From Planctomycetota bacterium (GTDB taxonomy: Bacteria; Planctomycetota; Phycisphaerae; WQYP01), in assembly GCA_021805985.1 (NCBI GenBank), contig JAJZDN010000007.1, positions 30,155 to 94,154 on the forward strand: DNA of 64,000 nt, given 5' to 3'. Positions within the stretch are counted from its first letter, which is position 1; every line of letters begins with the position of its first letter. This document shows positions 46,671-57,172 of the stretch, piece by piece. The notes below the pieces were generated by a model that was given only the letters and a program-made list of their open reading frames with translations, searched no databases and was not told the DNA's origin. Made by a program: the position numbers and the translations under genes.

Positions 46671-48083
46671 TCACAACATTTCTCCTGTTAATGCACACAT
46701 TAACGCCGACGCTTTGGCGAGGATTTCTGCATACTCTTCATCCGGGTTGCTGTCTGCAGTGATACCAGCGCCGGAACGAAACGTTGCAATGCCATTCGCA
46801 ATATGGATGGTACGAATGGCAATACTTAGCGTGCCGTCACCAGTCGGACTGATCCAACCGATGTTACCGCAATATATGCCGCGCCGCTGATTTTCCAGTT
46901 CACAGATAATCTCCATAGCTCTTATTTTAGGCACTCCGGTAATGGATCCACCCGGGCACATTGCCATGATGATTTCATCCCACCGTTGGCGCACATGACG
47001 CTGTAGTTTACCCGTGACTACGCCATGCGTATGCCAAAGCGTAGGCAATTTTTCGATCTGCCGGGGCTTTTCCACGCATACGCTGGTGCACACGCGGCCC
47101 AGATCATTGCGCAGCAAATCCACAATCATCGCCAGTTCAGAGCGATCTTTTGCGCTGTGCAACAATTCGTCACACCGTTGCTGATCCGCAACAGGGTTAT
47201 CACATACACGTCGGCGGGTGCCTTTGATGGGGCGTGTTTCAAGTAATTCTCCGGTACGTTGCAGAAATAACTCCGGCGATCCGGAAATAATTTCATCTTT
47301 CCCATAGCGAAAAAAAGCGGCATATTGGGCCGGGTTGTTTTTCACCAGACGCCGGAAAACTTGGTAGCCCGGTTCCGCCACTCTGGCGGTCCATACAGCG
47401 GATATATTGGCCTGATAGATATCCCCGGCGGCAATGTATTCTTTGCATCGATGCACCGCCGCCTTGAATGCGGAGCCGTCAGGATGCTGCAGGCTTGTAG
47501 CTTTCACCGGAGCATCCCTCGATGGATCGCGGGAGTTTGCTGCGTTAAATTGGCACTGCATTTGCCCGATGACACTTTCCGCGTTCCGGGAATCACCGTG
47601 CAACGCCACCAGAAGCCATTCCTGCTTATCAGCATCAAAAACGAAATAGCGTTCAAAGAGTTGCCAGCGTGCCAGCGGAAAAGCCCCCGCCGACCGAGCA
47701 CACAGTTGCGGCAATTCCGCCATCATGCCTGATTCGTAACTAAACCAGCCAAGCCAGCCGACCCGATCCGGGGGTGGTTGGGAAAAGGAAATAGCGGTGA
47801 TAATATCCTGCCAGCGCTGCCAGGCCTCGGGCGGCGTCATGGCCATGGCTCCATGAGCTTGGGCAGCTGCTGCCAAACCGGTGCAGTCCAGTTTAATTTT
47901 CCAGTCTTTCTCAGTTAGCTGCACGCCAGAAATCGCGTTCACCGCCAGGACCGCATGACCTCCGGTTCCACTGTGCAGCATAGCGATGTCTCCGCCCTGC
48001 CCAGCCAACACGCCCAGCAGCCGCACGGGATCAACGCTGCCGCCGGCAGTGCGACTATGCAGCGTAAGTTTGCAGTCAGCCAT
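46671..48083 (-). CDS. pabB: aminodeoxychorismate synthase component I / anthranilate synthase component I-like
   Basis: GDIYQANISAVW, GSPELFLQR, ETRPIKGTRRR, SELAMIVDLLRNDLGRVC, MCPGGSITGVPKIRAMEII, AGITADSNPDEEYAEIL. Confidence 0.9.
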   Translation of the reverse strand: MADCKLTLHSRTAGGSVDPVRLLGVLAGQGGDIAMLHSGTGGHAVLAVNAISGVQLTEKDWKIKLDCTGLAAAAQAHGAMAMTPPEAWQRWQDIITAISFSQPPPDRVGWLGWFSYESGMMAELPQLCARSAGAFPLARWQLFERYFVFDADKQEWLLVALHGDSRNAESVIGQMQCQFNAANSRDPSRDAPVKATSLQHPDGSAFKAAVHRCKEYIAAGDIYQANISAVWTARVAEPGYQVFRRLVKNNPAQYAAFFRYGKDEIISGSPELFLQRTGELLETRPIKGTRRRVCDNPVADQQRCDELLHSAKDRSELAMIVDLLRNDLGRVCTSVCVEKPRQIEKLPTLWHTHGVVTGKLQRHVRQRWDEIIMAMCPGGSITGVPKIRAMEIICELENQRRGIYCGNIGWISPTGDGTLSIAIRTIHIANGIATFRSGAGITADSNPDEEYAEILAKASALMCALTGEML

Positions 48084-48173
48084 TAAAACAACCTCACTCC
48101 AGGGAGGAACACTTTGGATTCGGACGATGGAGAAAATATCAGATTTCTGAACGCCCCATCACTGATGCAACGG

Positions 48174-48671
48174 TCAAATCGCCTGTACCACCAGTTGCCC
48201 TCCGGAAACCGCAACAGCGCGAATCGGCGCACCTTTTTCAATAATCGGACCTTCGCTTATACAGGCGATGCGGTGGCTGTCGATCAGACCGGTCCCCGCT
48301 GGGCGCAATGTCGTCACCGCTGATCCGGTGCGGCCGATCAAAGCGGTCAATTCAATCTGCTGATCTTTGGAAACAGCATTTACCTTCTGCGGATTAGGCC
48401 CCCGCAACAGCACGCGGCGGCCAACCGGGCTGTGGGGATAATACTTAACAAATCCGGTTATCACTAAGGGAGTCAGCAGCATAAAAGCCAAGGCGCTAAC
48501 CATGCCAAACGTCGGCCCGACAATAAAACTTAGAATCATGCCGGAAATAGCAAACGCGGCTGCGAGAATCGCCATAAAGCCGTGCGCCGGAACCACCAGT
48601 TCCGCCAATAGACATATAAAGCCTCCAACAAACAGCAGAACGCAGGCCATTAGAATGTCGAAATTCATCAC
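48174..48671 (-). CDS. NfeD-like membrane protein (short form)
   Basis: TM helices followed by OB-like domain LIGRTGSAVTTLRPAGTGLIDSHRIACISEGPIIEKGAPIRAVAVSGGQLVVQ. Confidence 0.85.
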   Translation of the reverse strand: MMNFDILMACVLLFVGGFICLLAELVVPAHGFMAILAAAFAISGMILSFIVGPTFGMVSALAFMLLTPLVITGFVKYYPHSPVGRRVLLRGPNPQKVNAVSKDQQIELTALIGRTGSAVTTLRPAGTGLIDSHRIACISEGPIIEKGAPIRAVAVSGGQLVVQAI

Positions 48672-48680
48672 AGTTCAATC

Positions 48681-50294
48681 CTAAATCGCTACTTCAACCG
48701 GGGTGCCATCATCCGATATTTTTTGCACGATAATCTGATTTTCCCGTATTTCCACGATCTCCACAGGCAATCCCGGTGCGATAAATTCATTGCGTGAAAC
48801 CACGGTTACCAGATGATTATCAAACCGCGCTTTTCCCGACGGCCGCAGTTCAGACACCGCCCGGCCGACCGCACCGACAAATAGCAGATCGCCCAGCGAC
48901 TCAGGCGACGTGTCATGACGCCGCGATGCGGATACCGGCCTTAATTGCAATCGCCGAAAGCCCGGCGTAATGTCCAGGAACTTGATCAGCAAGGCAATGA
49001 TCACGCCCGCGGTAATGATTGCCAAAGTTACCACGCCTAGACCGGTTTGAAAGGCCTCTTCCGCCCCAACCTCTGATGCGCCCATGGGAACGAAGGATGC
49101 AATCATACCGATAATGGCCAAAATAAATCCGGGAATCGCCAGCAGCCCCAAACCGCCAAAATGGATAAAGTCCAGGGCGATGATCACAATTCCCAGGAAA
49201 ATAATTCCCACTTCCCACCAGTTGGCAAGACCCGTGAGCATCGGGCCGCCAAGAAATAGTGCCAAGGCTACCAGCCCAATCACCCCGGGAATCAGCAGGC
49301 CCGGATGGCTGAATTCCATGTACCCGCAGACCAGCATAATAATCAGCAGAAAGAACCGGACCTGAAAACGCGAACAAAAGCGCGACGCTTTTTCCAGAAA
49401 ATCCAGACGCAATACGGGGATTTTTGACGCAGTAATGTTCAGCATGGCAGGCAGACTTTCCGGCTCATGGATGACTGCCGCTGCCGCGCCCATTTGCACC
49501 GCCTCCCGTGCGCCCAGTGTCAGAAGCGTACCGGCTGGCTTGGCGCGTTTAACATAGACCCACGGATGCACTGCGGCATGACCGGGCAGCGCCGCGGTCA
49601 GACGCATTAACTTAGCGCGGGCTTCTGGTGGAACAAACCGCGTTTCTCCGGTCATTTTATTAACAATTTCATCAATTTTTATTTTCCGATCCATCATACC
49701 CGCCAGAATCAACGCAGGATGATTCGCATGGTCTTTCTGCACAGACTTAAGTGCCGGCGATGACACCTCGGCCATCGGATCAACGGCGATTTTAGCGGCA
49801 TCAGCACCCCGCAGGGCAAAGCTTTGGCCGTCCCCCCATGCGGCATTACCCGACATGATGACCTTGGTACATGCCGCCGCAATAATAGCCGCCGGCCCGA
49901 CTGCCGCTCTGTTAACCCAGGCGACCGTGGCGACATGCGAATGCCGGATTAGCGCGGCAATTTTTAAAGCCTCACGGAGTTGCCCGGTGCGTGAATTGAT
50001 TTGAAAAATCAATATGGAACTTTTACGTTTCAATGCAGTTGCAATACGCCGTTGCACGCTGACCCATGTGATGCGATCAATCGAACCGGTTATCGTGATG
50101 ATTGCGGCGTGCCGATGCTCTGCAGCCTCCAGCGGTTTGGCAGCCACAGCGTGTGAAATCACACTCTGTCCGCGCACAAGTATCGGCAGGCATAAAATCA
50201 AGCCAAGCACAATGGCGTACAACACGCTGCCCCTGAAGGCCCCCTGCCGTCCAACACCAAACTTCCCAAAGCCGTTCCCACAACGCATTTTCAT
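48681..50294 (-). CDS. NfeD family protein (long form with ClpP-like domain)
   Basis: N-terminal ClpP-like region, TM bundle, C-terminal VGRAVSELRPSGKARFDNHLVTVVSRNEFIAPGLPVEIVEIRENQIIVQ. Confidence 0.87.
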   Translation of the reverse strand: MKMRCGNGFGKFGVGRQGAFRGSVLYAIVLGLILCLPILVRGQSVISHAVAAKPLEAAEHRHAAIITITGSIDRITWVSVQRRIATALKRKSSILIFQINSRTGQLREALKIAALIRHSHVATVAWVNRAAVGPAAIIAAACTKVIMSGNAAWGDGQSFALRGADAAKIAVDPMAEVSSPALKSVQKDHANHPALILAGMMDRKIKIDEIVNKMTGETRFVPPEARAKLMRLTAALPGHAAVHPWVYVKRAKPAGTLLTLGAREAVQMGAAAAVIHEPESLPAMLNITASKIPVLRLDFLEKASRFCSRFQVRFFLLIIMLVCGYMEFSHPGLLIPGVIGLVALALFLGGPMLTGLANWWEVGIIFLGIVIIALDFIHFGGLGLLAIPGFILAIIGMIASFVPMGASEVGAEEAFQTGLGVVTLAIITAGVIIALLIKFLDITPGFRRLQLRPVSASRRHDTSPESLGDLLFVGAVGRAVSELRPSGKARFDNHLVTVVSRNEFIAPGLPVEIVEIRENQIIVQKISDDGTPVEVAI

Positions 50295-50349
50295 GACCGC
50301 CTCTCATAGCGCTTATGATAGACGGGAAAAATGGCCGCCACAAGCGGAA

Positions 50350-51753
50350 TCATCGAGTCGCTCTTGGAGTATTCTCGCGAGCTTTTAGCAATTCCTCAAT
50401 TTTAACGAGAGGTTTTCGGCGATTCGGCCACGTCTGGGCCAGTGCTATGGCCTGTGAAAGCTTGATGCGTGTGGCAGCCGCATGGGCGTGGAGCAGGGCC
50501 CGCTGCAGGCGAAAGACGGTCACACGGTACCCTTCTATTCCGATTAATACACTGACCGAAAGCTTACGCACTATTTTTGACGACGAAGATCGAACGTTAG
50601 ACAGCATGGCCGGAACGGCGGGCGAGCCGATATCTGCCAGTGCATCCGCTGCGGGCAAGAGGGTTGCCGCAAGCGTCACAATGTGCAGCCGGGCATCAAC
50701 GTGTCTATGAAGGTTTAACAGTAGTATGCGCCGCGACAGGGCACCCACGGCCCCCTTCATTCGGAATTGTCCCAAGAGGAATGCCGCCTCACACTTAAGC
50801 CGGTTGGACGGCGAATCAAGATCACGCACCAGAATCGCCTCGATCCGCCGGCGCTGCACGACCATATCCAATCGTGATAGAGTTTTTTGCGTCACGGAGG
50901 CAAAGAGATTTGCCCCCAGGATTCGTTCAGCCGCAATCGGGCCAAAACGCTGGTCAGCAGCTTGAGATAGCCTATGGATTGCCAACTGTACATTCACAAC
51001 AGCCAGGTTGTACGAACGCCCTGATCTTGCGTAAAGTAATCCGCGGGCAGAAGCGGCATCGCCCAAGCGGATCGCGGCGGCAAGTTGGCGTAAAGCCGTT
51101 ACCGGGCCGCTGGCCGGAGTCACCGCAAATTCCAGTCGCGGGGGCGACGTACCCGTTTGTGGGGGAGCTTTCGGCCAGGCGACGCCCTTGGTGATCCATT
51201 TGACCGTTCCGTTGGCGGCGATATCCAGTTCAATCGCACTGGTTCCAACAAACGCCCAGGAGGGGGAGCCTTTCGCGCCGAATCCGACAAGGCGGCGTGC
51301 CATGACAAAAAAAATGCCTGGGTGGATTGCAAACAGCCTTCCGAGTGGCAACTTATTTGAACATGATTTGCCTGCCTGCAGGGGCACGTACCCGCCCGGA
51401 GAGAACGAAAACTTGGCGAGCACCAGAGAATCCTCGCCGGCTTTAGTCAGGGCGACGCACCTGTCGTCGCTATCCACCACGCGGACACGCCAGCCGCACG
51501 TCTTTGTGGTCTCCAGCCAGACGGGGCTTGGGCCTTGATTTACAACTACCGCATCCACGACCGCCCCTTTGTTTGCAGGGCGCAGGTCCACGGTGGTCTT
51601 GTGGAAGGATTCAAGGATCTTCGGGGGACGCAGCATGTGCCCATGCACCCAACGCGAGCCAAGGAGAGTCGCCACGAAAAATATCGCGGCCCCGAGGCTT
51701 ACGCGCGCAGCCCGAGCGCTCTCAGTCAACTGGGTTAGACGGGTGTGATCCAT
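50350..51753 (-). CDS. membrane-anchored HEAT-repeat-like hypothetical protein
   Basis: N-terminal TM; helical repeats LRQLAAAIRLGDAASARGLL...FLLGQFRMKGAVGALSRRILL; ATG overlaps upstream stop as TAATG. Confidence 0.65.
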   Translation of the reverse strand: MDHTRLTQLTESARAARVSLGAAIFFVATLLGSRWVHGHMLRPPKILESFHKTTVDLRPANKGAVVDAVVVNQGPSPVWLETTKTCGWRVRVVDSDDRCVALTKAGEDSLVLAKFSFSPGGYVPLQAGKSCSNKLPLGRLFAIHPGIFFVMARRLVGFGAKGSPSWAFVGTSAIELDIAANGTVKWITKGVAWPKAPPQTGTSPPRLEFAVTPASGPVTALRQLAAAIRLGDAASARGLLYARSGRSYNLAVVNVQLAIHRLSQAADQRFGPIAAERILGANLFASVTQKTLSRLDMVVQRRRIEAILVRDLDSPSNRLKCEAAFLLGQFRMKGAVGALSRRILLLNLHRHVDARLHIVTLAATLLPAADALADIGSPAVPAMLSNVRSSSSKIVRKLSVSVLIGIEGYRVTVFRLQRALLHAHAAATRIKLSQAIALAQTWPNRRKPLVKIEELLKARENTPRATR

Positions 51754-52298
51754 TATTGAACCTCCTGTTGGCACCAAATATCTGTGATCTGCTGAGCTTT
51801 CACGGACGTAATATTTGCAGTCCACTTCGGTTCCGTGTACGGGGTGGAGGTTGCAGAGGGATTGGGGGAACTCTCTCCGCTGTCTGTCCAGGCCTGGCCT
51901 GCCAAGGGGGCGTAATTCTTTACAACATTAGCTCCCTCCACGTTCCATTCCAGCGTCATATCCGCCGGGCAGTAATCCGCCACCAAGGGAATCTGCTGCC
52001 CAACTGAAACATCCTGCGTCTGGCCATCCACGACATTGCCACCGTATTCAATATGCGAAATGTAGGTGGTCAGCGGCTGCGGCCCGGCGTTGGCACATCC
52101 GGTCCAATATTGATTCGTTTTGGTGTCGGTAGCGGTCACACTGCAACTCACTGAAACCTGCCAATACCCCGCAGTCAGCGGCGTAAATGTCAACGTCGCA
52201 TATGACGATGTTGACGACTGCGTTGGGCTTATGGAATCAGTATAACTGCCTGATGGCGGTGAGCCAAAAGGATCCGCTTGCAAGGCCTGATATCGCTG
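51753..52298 (-). pseudogene. 5'-truncated copy (A2) of the exported Ig-like protein at 54178-55581
   Basis: GSYTDSISPTQSSTSSYATLTFTPLTAGYWQVSVSCSVTATDTKTNQYWTGCANAGPQPL matches GSYITPIPIIPKQPSPSPTATLTFTPLIAGHWRKFTSCSVSVRDAKTNQCWNGTANAAPQTL; in-frame TAG at 52299-52301, no ATG. Confidence 0.55.
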
Positions 52299-52356
52299 CT
52301 ACGCCGCCGTTCGCTTGCGGGGGGGGGCGTGGGACGGCTTCCGGCGAGGACAAATT

Positions 52357-53163
52357 TCATTTCCTTTTTGCTCCCGCGTGCGCCCCCGCCGGTTGGGGCA
52401 CCGGGTTTGCCATAATAAAAATATTAACGCGGCCCGTGGGTTTGCCGTTTTTGCCACAGTATACGTCTGCACTCCAAAGCTGCGGGCCTGATACATGTGC
52501 ATCCCAACTTTGCTGGCCTGTCCCTGCCGGGCCGCGCACGTACCTGATGCCAGTTGTCAGAAAGCGCCGGAGCGTCATTGCCTTGATATCGAAATGCATC
52601 GGCACTTTGAACTGTTTTGGCTCGGGGACCATCACGACGCCACTTCCCGATCCGCTCCCTATTCCTGGGGGGCCTTCGTTGTAGAAATGGACGGTCGGCA
52701 CCAACTTGGACAACACATGAGATTCCAGGCGATCAAAACTCATAGTGCCGTGAAAGGAAAGCTTTTGGTCCAGCGGGTCGTGCCGCCATGTCAGGAGGGG
52801 CCGGTTAACCAGGTAGATCACCCGCCGGGCATACGAGTACCGGCCGACGGCGAAATCCGGAAGGTGCGCTTGTAGAAACTTAACAAATTTGCCAACCGTC
52901 TGATCGGGTGGGGCAGGGGGTACACGGCTCTGGTCCATCCCGATGTACGGGCCCTTGGGCGTGGAGGAAATCATTCCTTCGACCGTGTACGCGAATCCGC
53001 CTCTGACGTAGGTCCGGGCCAAAAGCTCGCTGGGCCAGACTGCGCCCCGCCTCCCAGCAGCCGGCGTGCCCGATGTTTGCGGCAGAGTTGATGCGAGCGT
53101 AATAGCGAGCAAAGCCGCAACGATTGTGAAAGCCACATCGGCGTGAATACGCTTTGATTTCAT
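52357..53163 (-). CDS. exported protein of unknown function, paralogue B2
   Basis: Signal sequence; RVIYLVNRPLLTWRHDPLDQKLSFHGTMSF...MHFDIKAMTLRRFLTTGIRYV, full-length similarity to 53392-54141. Confidence 0.75.
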   Translation of the reverse strand: MKSKRIHADVAFTIVAALLAITLASTLPQTSGTPAAGRRGAVWPSELLARTYVRGGFAYTVEGMISSTPKGPYIGMDQSRVPPAPPDQTVGKFVKFLQAHLPDFAVGRYSYARRVIYLVNRPLLTWRHDPLDQKLSFHGTMSFDRLESHVLSKLVPTVHFYNEGPPGIGSGSGSGVVMVPEPKQFKVPMHFDIKAMTLRRFLTTGIRYVRGPAGTGQQSWDAHVSGPQLWSADVYCGKNGKPTGRVNIFIMANPVPQPAGAHAGAKRK

Positions 53164-53391
53164 GGAGGGTCTCCTTTCACGAACGATCCGCCCGTGCCCT
53201 GGTCCTTCTCGTTAACGACTTAGCCATCGTAGACGCTGCTCAACGGCTTGCCAAACTGGTCCACGACAGGAAACCGAAAAAGCCGTCTCGACCAGCGTAC
53301 CGAGAAGGACATCCCCAGGAGGGTCCAGCCCATCTGATCCCGTGTAAAGGGAACCGCTTTGCGCGGATTTTGTGGGCAGATTGCAGCCTTT

Positions 53392-54141
53392 TCACTTCGT
53401 CTTTGCAGTTGTTTGTTTTGCCGCCCCCCCGGCAGCCGCGGAAGCACGGACTGGCCATCCCTGCATCATGATGTCGACGCGACCAGTGAATTTCCCGCGC
53501 CTGACCATGTACGTGACCTGCCAGAGGGCGCCGCCAAAGTGCTGCGGGTTCATCTGATACACAATTCCCCTGGTAAGGAACTGCCGAAGTGTCATATCCT
53601 TGACGTTAAAATGCAGTGGTGTTTTGTAGGACTCCAAATTCGGACCCCCGGGCACGAAGAAAACCTTGGCGAACGGATTGTAATAAAAATGCACTTTGGG
53701 GAACTCCTTCGCGAATACCCTGGTCGCCAACTGCATGAAAGTCATGGTCCCATGGAAGTTGAATTTCTGGTTCATGGGATTAGACTTCCACTGGAGTGCC
53801 TTGCTGTAAACGATATGTATAACCCGCCGGTTGCCTTTATCACGCCAAACTGACCAGCCGGGAAGGTTTGTACTCAGAAATTTCACGGCTGCGCTCATCG
53901 TCCGCAAATGCGGAGGAACCGGCACCCGCATGTTGGATATTCCCGAATACTTACCGTTGCCCGTCGGCACCATATCCTCGATGGCAAGAATACAGTGGCC
54001 TCGGCTGGCGAGGTGCCCCAATAATTTGTAGAGCCAGACGGTTCTGCCCCGTACCGGTGCGACGGCGCTCGCAGCCTGCGACCATGCCAGAAGGCTCGCC
54101 AACAGCATGACTAAAGCGACTAAGTTCCTAAATTTATTCAT
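53392..54141 (-). CDS. exported protein of unknown function, paralogue B1
   Basis: Signal peptide; RVIHIVYSKALQWKSNPMNQKFNFHGTMTF...LHFNVKDMTLRQFLTRGIVYQ. Confidence 0.78.
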   Translation of the reverse strand: MNKFRNLVALVMLLASLLAWSQAASAVAPVRGRTVWLYKLLGHLASRGHCILAIEDMVPTGNGKYSGISNMRVPVPPHLRTMSAAVKFLSTNLPGWSVWRDKGNRRVIHIVYSKALQWKSNPMNQKFNFHGTMTFMQLATRVFAKEFPKVHFYYNPFAKVFFVPGGPNLESYKTPLHFNVKDMTLRQFLTRGIVYQMNPQHFGGALWQVTYMVRRGKFTGRVDIMMQGWPVRASAAAGGAAKQTTAKTK

Positions 54142-54177
54142 CTTCGGTAAACCTCTTCTTACGACGGTCCATTTGCC

Positions 54178-55581
54178 TCACGGCCAAGTGATAATAAGCG
54201 TGCCATTACTATAGGTAATCGAACGGCTCGCAATGCCTGGATTCAGCGTGAATCCTGCGACCTGCACCTGCCAATCCACGGACCTCGGCCCCGAATTCGG
54301 AATCGTCGACGGCGTAGCGTTCGCCCAATTCTGGGCTTTCTGGCTCCCGGCGGGGAGAGGATTTGGCGCAGGTGCGTCAACGCCGACGCCGACCCAATCG
54401 CTATATTGGCCGTTTTTGATTTTCACATTGATCGCCGCAAACAGTCCACTGCCGTTTTCCCGGACTTTCTGGCCATTGTAGAGGCCGCTGAGAACCTTCC
54501 CAAACTGGTCATCTACCGTCAGCGTTTGGGCAGTACCGGCCATAGTGGCCAATTCCACTTGTCCTGGTTGCAATCCCCAAACGGCTGGAATGCTCGACCC
54601 GGAGAGTGCCCTATTCTCGCTCGCGACCGCGTGGTTGAAGGTCGGAAGCGGTGGGCTGATGGCCTTGGGAATTTCGATGGTGACGATGGCTGTTCCGAGC
54701 ACGGCGTTGCCGTCCTTCCCCTCAATTTCCACATCTCCCTTCGGCATACTCGGTGCGGTGCCTGCGGTACCGTAGAGATCAAGGGTTATCTGTCCGGTCG
54801 TGGAATTTGAGTGGTAATTCTCGACGGCTGCCGCACCCGTGCTGCCGGGAAGCGTGGCGAAATTGGCCACATTTACGTTGTTGATCAGGTCCTTCGGTGC
54901 CACCGTCGCTGTTACCGACACGAAGATCGCCCCCGGATTACTGTTGTCCGCACCTGTGTATAACGGATTCGGTGAAAAGGACACTGTTGCGCTGGTCAGC
55001 GTCTGTGGTGCCGCGTTGGCGGTGCCGTTCCAGCATTGATTAGTCTTAGCGTCCCTCACGGACACGGAGCAACTCGTAAATTTCCTCCAGTGGCCCGCGA
55101 TCAGCGGCGTAAATGTCAGCGTTGCTGTCGGCGACGGCGATGGCTGCTTGGGAATTATGGGTATTGGAGTAATGTAGCTTCCCGACGTCGCGGTACCATA
55201 GGGCGCAACTTTCCCTTCGAAATTTAACCAAGTTCCTTTGTACTGTACGCTGGTAACCGACCATGTGTATTCTGCTGATAAATCGCCTTCGGAAACGCCG
55301 GGTGGCGGCGTGTAGCCCGCAGGCAGGCTTGCCGTCGCCGGGCTGCTTACGCAGACCGGATTGGGCGAAAATGCCTTCATACTTGCTGTCACGGTCACCG
55401 TCCCCGGGTTAGTGCATGCCATCGCAACTTTAACCGCCACCAGCATGGCACATATCACAGCGACTACAGCACCAATGCCTCCCCAAGCGCCGCCGAGGGC
55501 TTTGGGCCGGTGCACTTTCCACGGCGGTATTATCGGTGTCCGCATGGCGGTCTGCAATCTTTTTCGTTGCGGGTTATCCAT
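54178..55581 (-). CDS. exported Ig-like/beta-rich protein A1
   Basis: N-terminal TM/signal (GGIGAVVAVICAMLVAVKVAMACT), repeated Ig-like strands (FSPNPVCVSSPATASLPAG, VSFSPNPLYTGADNSNPGAIFVSVTATV). Confidence 0.72.
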   Translation of the reverse strand: MDNPQRKRLQTAMRTPIIPPWKVHRPKALGGAWGGIGAVVAVICAMLVAVKVAMACTNPGTVTVTASMKAFSPNPVCVSSPATASLPAGYTPPPGVSEGDLSAEYTWSVTSVQYKGTWLNFEGKVAPYGTATSGSYITPIPIIPKQPSPSPTATLTFTPLIAGHWRKFTSCSVSVRDAKTNQCWNGTANAAPQTLTSATVSFSPNPLYTGADNSNPGAIFVSVTATVAPKDLINNVNVANFATLPGSTGAAAVENYHSNSTTGQITLDLYGTAGTAPSMPKGDVEIEGKDGNAVLGTAIVTIEIPKAISPPLPTFNHAVASENRALSGSSIPAVWGLQPGQVELATMAGTAQTLTVDDQFGKVLSGLYNGQKVRENGSGLFAAINVKIKNGQYSDWVGVGVDAPAPNPLPAGSQKAQNWANATPSTIPNSGPRSVDWQVQVAGFTLNPGIASRSITYSNGTLIITWP

Positions 55582-55658
55582 TTCCCATTTCTCCTGAATT
55601 TGAATGAAAACGTTCTTGTAACTTGCTCCGCAGTGCATCAACGGGTAATCTCAAGGAC

Positions 55659-56219
55659 ATGCAGAAAGTCATGGCCGCTGAAGATGTTGCGCAGACAGTA
55701 AGACAGATTTCTCAACAGATTCTGGCCGCTGGCGAGCTTATGTCCGGTGGCCCTTTGGCGCTTGTGGGTATACGCCGCCGGGGCGAAATACTGGCCCAAC
55801 GGATTGCCGCAGCCATTTATGCCCAAACCGGGCGGAATCCTGATGTAGGGGCACTGGATATCACGATGTACCGCGATGATATTGTGGGGAATCGATCCAT
55901 CATTATTCCCATGGGAACGGAAATGAATTTCCGCATTGATGATCGTGCGGTGCTGCTGCTGGATGATGTATTGCACACGGGCCGAAGCGTGCGGGCCGCG
56001 CTGGATGCGCTGGTGGATTTTGGCCGGCCGCGGTTTATCCGCCTGGCGGTGCTGGTGGACCGTGGTGGAAGAGAATATCCAATATCTGCGGATTTTGTCG
56101 GGCGCCGCCTGGAAATTCCGGATGAATCCCGCGTGCGCGTGAGTTTAAAGCCCATTGATTCTGAGGATGCCGTGGTTGTGAATTCCGCCGCGCCGACCCC
56201 TGCAGGAGTCCGCTTATGA
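55659..56219 (+). CDS. pyrR: PyrR bifunctional regulator/uracil phosphoribosyltransferase
   Basis: LALVGIRRRGEILAQRIA, LDITMYRDD, VLLLDDVLHTGRSVRAALDALVDFGRP. Confidence 0.95.
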   Translation: MQKVMAAEDVAQTVRQISQQILAAGELMSGGPLALVGIRRRGEILAQRIAAAIYAQTGRNPDVGALDITMYRDDIVGNRSIIIPMGTEMNFRIDDRAVLLLDDVLHTGRSVRAALDALVDFGRPRFIRLAVLVDRGGREYPISADFVGRRLEIPDESRVRVSLKPIDSEDAVVVNSAAPTPAGVRL

Positions 56220-57172
56220 CAGCAAGCCCGACCTGGACTCGCCCGCATCTTCTGACCCTGGAGGCGCTTTCGAGCCAGGAAATTCTGACCGTGCTGGATA
56301 CCGCTGAGGCGCTGAAGGAAGTTTCCACGCGCAGTATCAAAAAAGTGCCGGCCTTGCGTGGCAAGGTGGTGGTCAATTTGTTTTTTGAAGATTCCACCCG
56401 CACCCGAACCAGTTTCCGCCTCGCGGCACAGCGCATGAGTGCCGACGTGGTGGATTTTTCGGTTTCCACGAGTTCGGTCAGTAAAGGGGAAACACTCATC
56501 GACACCGCCCGCAGCATTGTGGCCATGGGCGTGGATGCCATAATTATCCGCCATCGCAGCAGCGGCGCGCCTGAGGTACTAAGCCGCACGGTGCAATGCA
56601 GCGTTATTAACGCCGGTGACGGGAGCCATGAACATCCGACGCAGGGGCTGCTGGACTTATTTACCATGCGGGAAGCGTGCCAACGGCGCGGTAAAAAAAT
56701 CAGTGATATGCACGTGGCCATCGTGGGCGACATTGCTAATTCTCGCGTGGCCCGCAGTAATCTCTGGGCATTAACCAAACTGGGCGCAAAAGTCACGCTG
56801 GTGGGTCCCACCACGCTTTGCCCATCGGCCTTCGCTGAGTTCGGCGTGCAGGTCACGCATGATTTCGACTCCATCCTCGGTGAGGTGGATGTCATTAATA
56901 TGTTGCGTGTGCAGTTTGAGCGGCTGACCAGCGCGGCATTTCCCAGCGTGCGGGAATATAGCCGATATTTCGGCCTCAATGATGAACGCTTGAAGCGCTG
57001 TCGCCCCGATGTGCTGGTGCTGCACCCCGGCCCGATGAACCGCGGTCTGGAAATTACCAGCGCTGTGGCGGATGGTGAAAAATCTGCGATTCTGCGACAG
57101 GTCAGCAATGGTCTGGCGGTGCGGATGGCGGTGCTGTATTTGTGCATTGGTGCCGGGCAGTTCCGGGAATAG
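56216..57172 (+). CDS. pyrB: aspartate carbamoyltransferase catalytic subunit
   Basis: FFEDSTRTRTSFRLAAQRM, HRSSGAPE, GDGSHEHPTQGLLDLFT, HPGPMNRGLEI. Confidence 0.97.
   Translation: MTASPTWTRPHLLTLEALSSQEILTVLDTAEALKEVSTRSIKKVPALRGKVVVNLFFEDSTRTRTSFRLAAQRMSADVVDFSVSTSSVSKGETLIDTARSIVAMGVDAIIIRHRSSGAPEVLSRTVQCSVINAGDGSHEHPTQGLLDLFTMREACQRRGKKISDMHVAIVGDIANSRVARSNLWALTKLGAKVTLVGPTTLCPSAFAEFGVQVTHDFDSILGEVDVINMLRVQFERLTSAAFPSVREYSRYFGLNDERLKRCRPDVLVLHPGPMNRGLEITSAVADGEKSAILRQVSNGLAVRMAVLYLCIGAGQFRE

What the first reader, a model, noticed from the sequence alone, without database searches (positions are those of the whole stretch)
50350..55581. Duplicated cassette of exported proteins of unknown function: A1-B1-(relic)-B2-A2-C
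Five minus-strand ORFs between nfeD and pyrR. B1 (53392-54141) and B2 (52357-53163) are full-length paralogues sharing FHGTM[ST]F and [ML]HF[ND][VI]K.MTLR.FLT.GI.Y. A1 and A2 share TATLTFTPL.AG.W and DAKTNQ.W.G.ANA.PQ.L. C is a HEAT-repeat-like protein whose ATG overlaps the A2 stop (TAATG, AGGAGG just upstream). All carry signal or TM segments. The B family has a beta-alpha unit reminiscent of STN/secretin N-terminal modules. I recognise no described system of this composition, so this is the best candidate in the window for a novel cell-envelope or surface system.
Basis: partly seen in the sequence, partly recalled or inferred. Interest (0 to 1): 0.72.

Follow-up and report, generated by a model that had tools for sequence, protein, structure and literature searches.

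The report
Orphan array of swappable exported-protein cassettes
The stretch is a partly decayed array of interchangeable gene pairs for exported proteins, found only in one family of uncultured planctomycete-like bacteria and built like the swappable tail-plus-partner cassettes of bacterial rivalry systems, although no toxin is recognisable and the function is untested.

Summary
The genes are real (A2 lacks a signal; the HEAT match is sub-threshold), but "duplicated cassette" is not the right reading. In the window's own family (f1), and in 0 of about 370 other genomes of the class, A genes have a constant ~180-aa export/Ig-like part and an exchangeable tail. Intact loci read E (exported Reg_prop propeller, ~900 aa) - A - X. 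Four tail classes pair one-to-one with four unrelated exported partner families (B, C, D, F; 29 of 29). Two heads in one genome share E plus constant A at up to 87% DNA identity, then similarity stops at the constant/tail boundary. Further A fragments without start or signal follow downstream, as in CDI/Rhs orphan modules. The window array lacks E except for its last codons (55574-55603). It holds A1-B1 (full module), B2 behind a tail relic, and A2-C (orphan, shortened tail). It sits on a breakpoint: sisters have murA-nfeD and BI-1-pyrR instead. Away from heads, partners outlive their tails (19 versus 0); two pairs of tail-less partners show purifying selection (dN/dS 0.24, 0.36). This recalls orphan immunity genes, but tails look structural and Ig-like, one is fused to its partner, and no toxin or delivery domain is found.

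The parts
55574..55603 (-). Relic of E: last nine codons and stop (SNSGEMGNG*), overlapping the A1 start
   Evidence: Same frame and overlap as in intact E-A loci: ANSGEMGNE* (L121), SNSGEMGHE* (L130), PNSGELGNG* (L124)
55006..55581 (-). A1 constant part: long basic N-terminus, hydrophobic helix (residues ~34-53), Ig-like domain
   Evidence: tblastn to head A constant region E 3e-60; AF2 pLDDT ~90-98 over most of the Ig-like part; Ig-fold PDB hits E ~1e-5
54178..55005 (-). A1 variable tail, class B (275 aa), intact
   Evidence: Clusters with ten other tails, all followed by a B gene
53392..54141 (-). B1, exported 249-aa partner, cognate to the A1 tail
   Evidence: model m03666d7d23ea pLDDT 81.7, pTM 0.74
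53193..53300 (-). Relic of a class-B tail (residues 158-193 of 284), frame-broken
   Evidence: tblastn E 8e-6
52357..53163 (-). B2, intact partner whose A tail is lost
   Evidence: tree shows B2 outside the supported group that holds B1
52080..52310 (-). Constant-block fragment of A2, no signal peptide and no strong start codon
   Evidence: Matches constant part residues 114-190, E 2e-35; no hydrophobic segment
51753..52079 (-). A2 tail, class C, shortened (108 aa against about 335)
   Evidence: 63% identical over 52-54 aa to class-C tails
50350..51753 (-). C, partner gene (ATG start; GTG at 51825 also possible), overlapping the A2 stop
   Evidence: Matches the partner part of the A+C fusion in L134 (32% over 256 aa, E 1.6e-19) and C of L167
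50347..50348 (.). Left breakpoint: homology to the nfeD side of sister genomes ends here
   Evidence: 90.7% identity over 48169-50347 in three sisters, none beyond; their nfeD neighbour is murA
55619..55620 (.). Right breakpoint: homology to the pyrR side of sister genomes starts here
   Evidence: Alignments to five same-genus genomes start at 55619-55620, a sixth (G001) at 55608; the upstream BI-1-like gene of those five is on contig C163 here

Best explanation
The window holds an orphan, partly decayed array of a lineage-specific polymorphic E-A-X cassette system. Shown: in intact loci an exported propeller protein (E) and the constant N-terminal part of an Ig-like exported protein (A) form a fixed head; the A tail and the gene after it (X = B, C, D or F) form a cognate, exchangeable pair. 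Extra modules (A fragment + tail + X) lie downstream in the same orientation behind a conserved DNA block, and tails decay faster than X. Inferred: recombination at the block places a new tail-X pair behind the head and pushes old X genes downstream, where they are kept. Inferred, least certain: E-A presents the tail at the cell surface for contact with kin or competitors, and X binds the cognate tail and protects or completes it, i.e. it works like an effector/immunity or self-recognition pair. In this genome E is gone from the array, so A1-B1, B2 and A2-C would be mainly a store of partners.
For: Head loci E-A-X in many relatives, with overlapping or nearly adjoining genes. Tail class predicts partner family 29/29 (B 11, D 8, F 5, C 5), clustered independently; chance of perfect concordance 2.6e-15, not corrected for shared ancestry. 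Heads of one genome share E+A-constant DNA (G023: 2780 bp at 87%, ending at L126:2767, constant part ends 2766; G007: 82%, ending at L124:1354/L167:3113, the boundary itself) and then nothing. Downstream A blocks follow the partner in L119, L120, L121, L124, L126, L167, in the same orientation. E relic in the window. Tail completeness: heads 12/12, other modules 11/30; 19 X without a full tail, 0 full tails without X; p 1.3e-4 and 3.8e-6 (modules scored by hand). Tail-less X pairs dN/dS 0.36 and 0.24. Paralogues of one genome do not group together on trees. Same anatomy as CDI/Rhs orphan modules (PMC3150448) and displaced immunity arrays (PMC5361080).
Against: No toxin, immunity or delivery domain in Pfam, NCBIfam, PADLOC or PHROGs. 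Invariant tail residues are mostly Gly/Pro/aromatic/hydrophobic, without an evident catalytic set; the tails begin with Ig-like strands. Partners are large for immunity proteins (250-840 aa) and exported. In L134 tail and C are one polypeptide without an internal signal, which suits a joint structural role better than toxin and antidote. Zhang et al. 2012 (PMC3482391) found no Ig-type immunity proteins. Exchange is inferred from patterns; no before/after pair of strains was seen. All genomes are draft assemblies.
Confidence: 0.55

Rival explanations
1. Variable surface adhesin or structural appendage: E-A-X is a cell-surface complex for attachment or glycan binding. Tails and partners are alternative structural modules, varied by recombination with silent cassettes as in S-layer or pilin variation; no antagonism is involved.
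For: Ig-like fold of A; sensor-type propeller in E; no catalytic residues evident in tails; tail-C fused to its partner in L134; components exported by sequence.
Against: It does not readily explain why partners persist intact after loss of their tails while no full tail lacks a partner, nor purifying selection on tail-less partners.
Confidence: 0.3
2. Partner genes (B, C, D, F) are the real effectors, secreted proteins with their own functions, and A tails are dedicated escorts or anchors; orphan partners are simply working genes without an escort.
For: Partners carry signal-like segments, are intact, and the two tail-less pairs tested are under purifying selection; pairing is strict.
Against: The 12 scored heads all have a full tail; no enzymatic or effector family is recognised in any partner.
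Confidence: 0.1
3. Local tandem duplication of an A-B cassette plus C: one novel envelope operon.
For: B1 and B2 are homologous and adjacent; A1 and A2 share a block.
Against: Genome-mates do not group on B and D trees: B4's closest relative is in G004, and B2 falls outside the supported group that holds B1. A1 and A2 tails belong to different classes, each with its own partner. A2 lacks start and signal.
Confidence: 0.05
4. Meaningless decaying debris of a former gene cluster.
For: Truncated A2, tail relic, E relic, no head found in this genome.
Against: Four intact ORFs (A1, B1, B2, C). B1 against its G004 relative has dN/dS 0.15 with saturated dS (2.63); tail-less orphan partners in other loci have 0.24-0.36.
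Confidence: 0.1

Closest known systems
CDI (CdiA-CT/CdiI) and Rhs polymorphic toxin loci with orphan modules (PMC3150448)
   Same: Constant N-part, variable C-terminal part demarcated at a conserved sequence, cognate gene directly downstream, downstream orphan fragments that lack translation starts and keep the boundary block
   Different: No FhaB/TPS, VENN, RHS or PAAR features recognised; tails have no recognised toxin domain and look structural; partners are exported and large; a separate propeller gene (E) precedes A
Displaced orphan immunity-gene arrays of V. cholerae T6SS clusters (PMC5361080)
   Same: Arrays of intact partner genes with remnants of their lost upstream tails, not explained by in-genome duplication
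   Different: No T6SS component matched in the array proteins; protection not demonstrated
Periplasmic propeller domains of hybrid two-component regulators (Reg_prop, PF07494; PDB 3v9f, 4a2l)
   Same: E matches Reg_prop (E 5e-16 to 3e-20) and these solved propellers (E 2e-23 to 5e-25)
   Different: No kinase or regulator domain matched in E, which ends in an unclassified region (RDDW.T.GDW.GRYG)
STN/secretin N0-like domains and DotD (for B)
   Same: beta-alpha-beta-beta-alpha-beta-beta topology, twice
   Different: No STN Pfam match in any of 16 members; best fold hit not significant (E 0.23)
Recombining surface-protein cassettes (Campylobacter fetus sapA, Neisseria pilS; from memory)
   Same: Conserved 5' block with silent downstream cassettes
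   Different: Here each cassette brings its own partner gene of an unrelated family

Membership tests
Polymorphic toxin systems (CDI/Rhs type) | Constant N-terminal part with variable C-terminal part joined at a fixed boundary | tested here: met
   Similarity between heads of one genome ends at the constant/tail boundary
Polymorphic toxin systems (CDI/Rhs type) | Cognate gene immediately downstream that changes with the C-terminal class | tested here: met
   29/29 concordance over four classes
Polymorphic toxin systems (CDI/Rhs type) | Orphan modules downstream, lacking start and export signal | tested here: met
   window A2 is one
Polymorphic toxin systems (CDI/Rhs type) | C-terminal part is a toxin domain | tested here: not met
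   No toxin family in Pfam, NCBIfam, PADLOC or PHROGs; no evident catalytic set. An unknown toxin cannot be excluded
Polymorphic toxin systems (CDI/Rhs type) | Downstream protein neutralises the toxin | not testable with these tools
   Needs expression assays
Polymorphic toxin systems (CDI/Rhs type) | Known delivery leader or machinery (TPS, RHS repeats, PAAR/VgrG, WXG, PVC) | tested here: not met
   None matched in A or E; only Reg_prop in E above cut-off
Hybrid two-component regulators | Reg_prop propeller | tested here: met
   E proteins
Hybrid two-component regulators | Histidine kinase and receiver domains | tested here: not met
   None matched in the E proteins scanned
STN/secretin N-terminal domain (for B) | Profile match | tested here: not met
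   No STN hit in 16 members at E up to 10
STN/secretin N-terminal domain (for B) | Fold | tested here: inconclusive
   Topology fits the AF2 model; best PDB match E 0.23, prob 0.51
HEAT-repeat proteins (for C) | Profile match above cut-off | tested here: not met
   HEAT_2 E 0.01, 16.6 against 27.7 bits
Ig-like exported proteins (for A) | Ig-like beta-sandwich | tested here: met
   AF2 model pLDDT above 90 over most of residues ~60-205; PDB Ig-fold hits E ~1e-5, prob ~1; TM-scores are low (0.13-0.18 by query), so the call rests on the local fold; tail region modelled poorly

The most novel reading that the evidence does not exclude
A previously undescribed, fully extracytoplasmic polymorphic recognition or antagonism system of one planctomycete family: a propeller/Ig-like head presents exchangeable Ig-like tails, and exported partner proteins of unrelated families give cognate protection or self-recognition. 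Partner arrays such as this one would be immunity stores, and the cassettes act as sites of chromosome rearrangement.
Probability: 0.35. Interest if true: 0.85.

Novelty: new variant of a known kind. Interest (0 to 1): 0.66.

Why it matters
If the pairing and module exchange mean what they mean in CDI, Rhs and T6SS loci, this is a contact or kin-recognition system in bacteria for which few are described, made of protein families with no annotation, and it shows the constant/variable-plus-partner design built from Ig-like and propeller domains. It turns a set of unannotated genes into testable pairs: four tail classes with four cognate partners. The mismatch between the array anatomy (toxin/immunity-like) and the protein content (structural-looking tails, large exported partners, one fusion) is an open question that simple expression and binding assays could settle.

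Tried and rejected
Pfam, NCBIfam, PADLOC and PHROGs for the components: no family above cut-off except Reg_prop in E. Sequence search of PDB with B and A profiles: nothing useful. Fold search with B: no significant match. B in plasmids: no match. Genome-contig scan with the 16-row B alignment could not be run; the 4-row one found only two loci, both already known from the genome search. tRNA near the array as an integration site: none in 48000-57000. Idea that the conserved A block is a free-standing mobile repeat: its DNA matches in this genome lie in or near A/B/D loci, so rejected. Idea of local duplication: disfavoured by trees. Literature: one search combining Reg_prop and planctomycetes found no paper.
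Full report
What is in the window. A1 starts at ATG 55581; B1, B2 and C are intact; A2 (51753-52283) has no ATG start, no signal or TM segment and begins inside a block shared by the A genes. The 'relic' between B1 and B2 is a piece of an A tail (53193-53300, E 8e-6). Overlapping the A1 start, in another frame, are the last nine codons of a gene that is otherwise gone, SNSGEMGNG* at 55574-55603, with the C-terminal sequence of E proteins in related genomes. The same bases carry the A1 ribosome-binding region, so part of this conservation may be due to A; the joint is still that of an E-A locus.

Relatives. Full-length B genes occur four times in this genome (two in the window, C19, C158) and A-like or D-like pieces at several more places (C33, C73, C101). 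B is present in 8 of 28 genomes of the window's family and in none of about 370 others of the class; A in 17 of 28, likewise none outside. D is nearly as restricted, with two weak outside hits. E is found in 25 of 28 and in ten genomes of other families; in the three of these whose loci were looked at there is no A. Two of the relatives are public MAGs titled Planctomycetota bacterium.

The system. Mapping 28 loci shows the order E-A-X. E is about 900-960 aa with a Reg_prop propeller. A starts inside or next to the end of E. The first ~170-190 aa of A are constant: a long basic N-terminus, a hydrophobic helix and an Ig-like domain (AF2 pLDDT above 90 over most of it; Ig-fold PDB hits E ~1e-5). 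After a conserved block (TATLTFTPLxAGYWQVSxSCSVTVTDTKTNQYWxGSxNAGPxxLTS) the sequence changes class. Four tail classes were found, each followed by its own partner family: B 11/11, D 8/8, F 5/5, C 5/5, clustered independently (2.6e-15 under random pairing, a figure that ignores relatedness). The C, D and F tails were separated by best matches inside one loose cluster. A possible fifth class (L133, L131) has no resolved partner. In L134 tail C and partner C form one ORF with no internal signal peptide.

Constant head, variable tail, orphan modules. Two heads within genome G023 share 2780 bp at 87% through E and constant A; similarity stops at L126:2767, one base after the constant part. In G007 the shared stretch (82%) stops at the boundary itself (L124:1354, L167:3113). 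Downstream of the partner another A block follows in the same orientation in L119, L120, L121, L124, L126 and L167. These fragments resemble the orphan cdiA-CT/cdiI modules of CDI loci, which lack translation starts and keep the boundary sequence (PMC3150448).

Partners outlive tails. Scored by hand, all 12 heads have full tails, but only 11 of 30 other modules do; 19 partners stand without a full tail, while no full tail of these four classes with readable downstream sequence lacks its partner (Fisher 1.3e-4, sign test 3.8e-6). Two pairs of tail-less partners from different genomes have dN/dS 0.36 (B) and 0.24 (D) (Nei-Gojobori, dS 0.63 and 0.97). On trees of B and D the genes of one genome do not group together, the pattern used for V. 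cholerae immunity arrays to argue for displacement rather than duplication (PMC5361080). In the window: A1-B1 is a complete module without E, B2 a partner with a tail relic, A2-C a module with its tail cut to 108 aa.

Genomic site. DNA identity to three sister genomes (90.7%) ends at 50347, three bases from the end of C; on the other side it starts at 55619-55620. In three sisters nfeD is next to murA, and in this genome murA lies beside another cassette (A3-D5 on C33). In five same-genus genomes pyrR follows a BI-1-like gene, here on contig C163. So the array sits where two older gene neighbourhoods were broken. Insertion followed by recombination between arrays would explain this, but the order of events is not shown.

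Function. Shown: exported components (by sequence), conserved order, strict pairing, abrupt boundary, asymmetric decay, purifying selection on the orphan partners tested. Inferred: exchange by recombination at the block, binding of tail and partner, surface presentation. Pair logic and decay point to an effector/immunity or self-recognition system. Against this, no toxin or delivery domain is recognised, invariant tail residues look structural, partners are large and exported, and one tail is fused to its partner. A variable adhesin or structural complex is the main rival. B may have an STN/N0-like fold, two beta-alpha-beta-beta-alpha-beta-beta modules, but the best PDB match is not significant. 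It is therefore not filed as a member of polymorphic toxin systems, although it is organised like one.

Limits. All genomes are drafts; many loci end at contig ends; module scoring was done by eye; relatedness among loci inflates the significance of the pairing and decay counts; dN/dS values near saturation are rough. Localisation, expression and binding are untested.

Noticed in passing
L028:5128-6042: A fragment of the A block is fused in frame to a methyltransferase-like ORF, apparently a chance junction left by array decay.
   Followed up: no
L027:6791-8341: The A3 ORF of contig C33 starts inside the 5' end of the divergent murA; its first ~100 residues are read from the strand opposite to murA and from the gap, and it has no signal segment.
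   Followed up: partly
L029:6422-8434: A 670-aa ORF joins a D-like region with a region similar to window C (E 5e-8) and appears frame-broken downstream; no A gene beside it was detected.
   Followed up: partly
L157:4065-6773, L158:6547-9153: Two E-like propeller genes in this genome without A neighbours; a small family of downstream genes (L157_231, L158_331, L162_466, L163_381) recurs near such E genes.
   Followed up: partly
L130:6404-7024: A second, partial E fragment lies after the C partner in G008, so E pieces can also be displaced downstream.
   Followed up: no
window:48174-50294: Two tandem nfeD-like genes (537 and 165 aa) lie beside the array; the order is kept in sister genomes.
   Followed up: partly
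L134:1684-4371: Single ORF joining constant A, tail C and partner C, without a signal peptide at the joint.
   Followed up: yes
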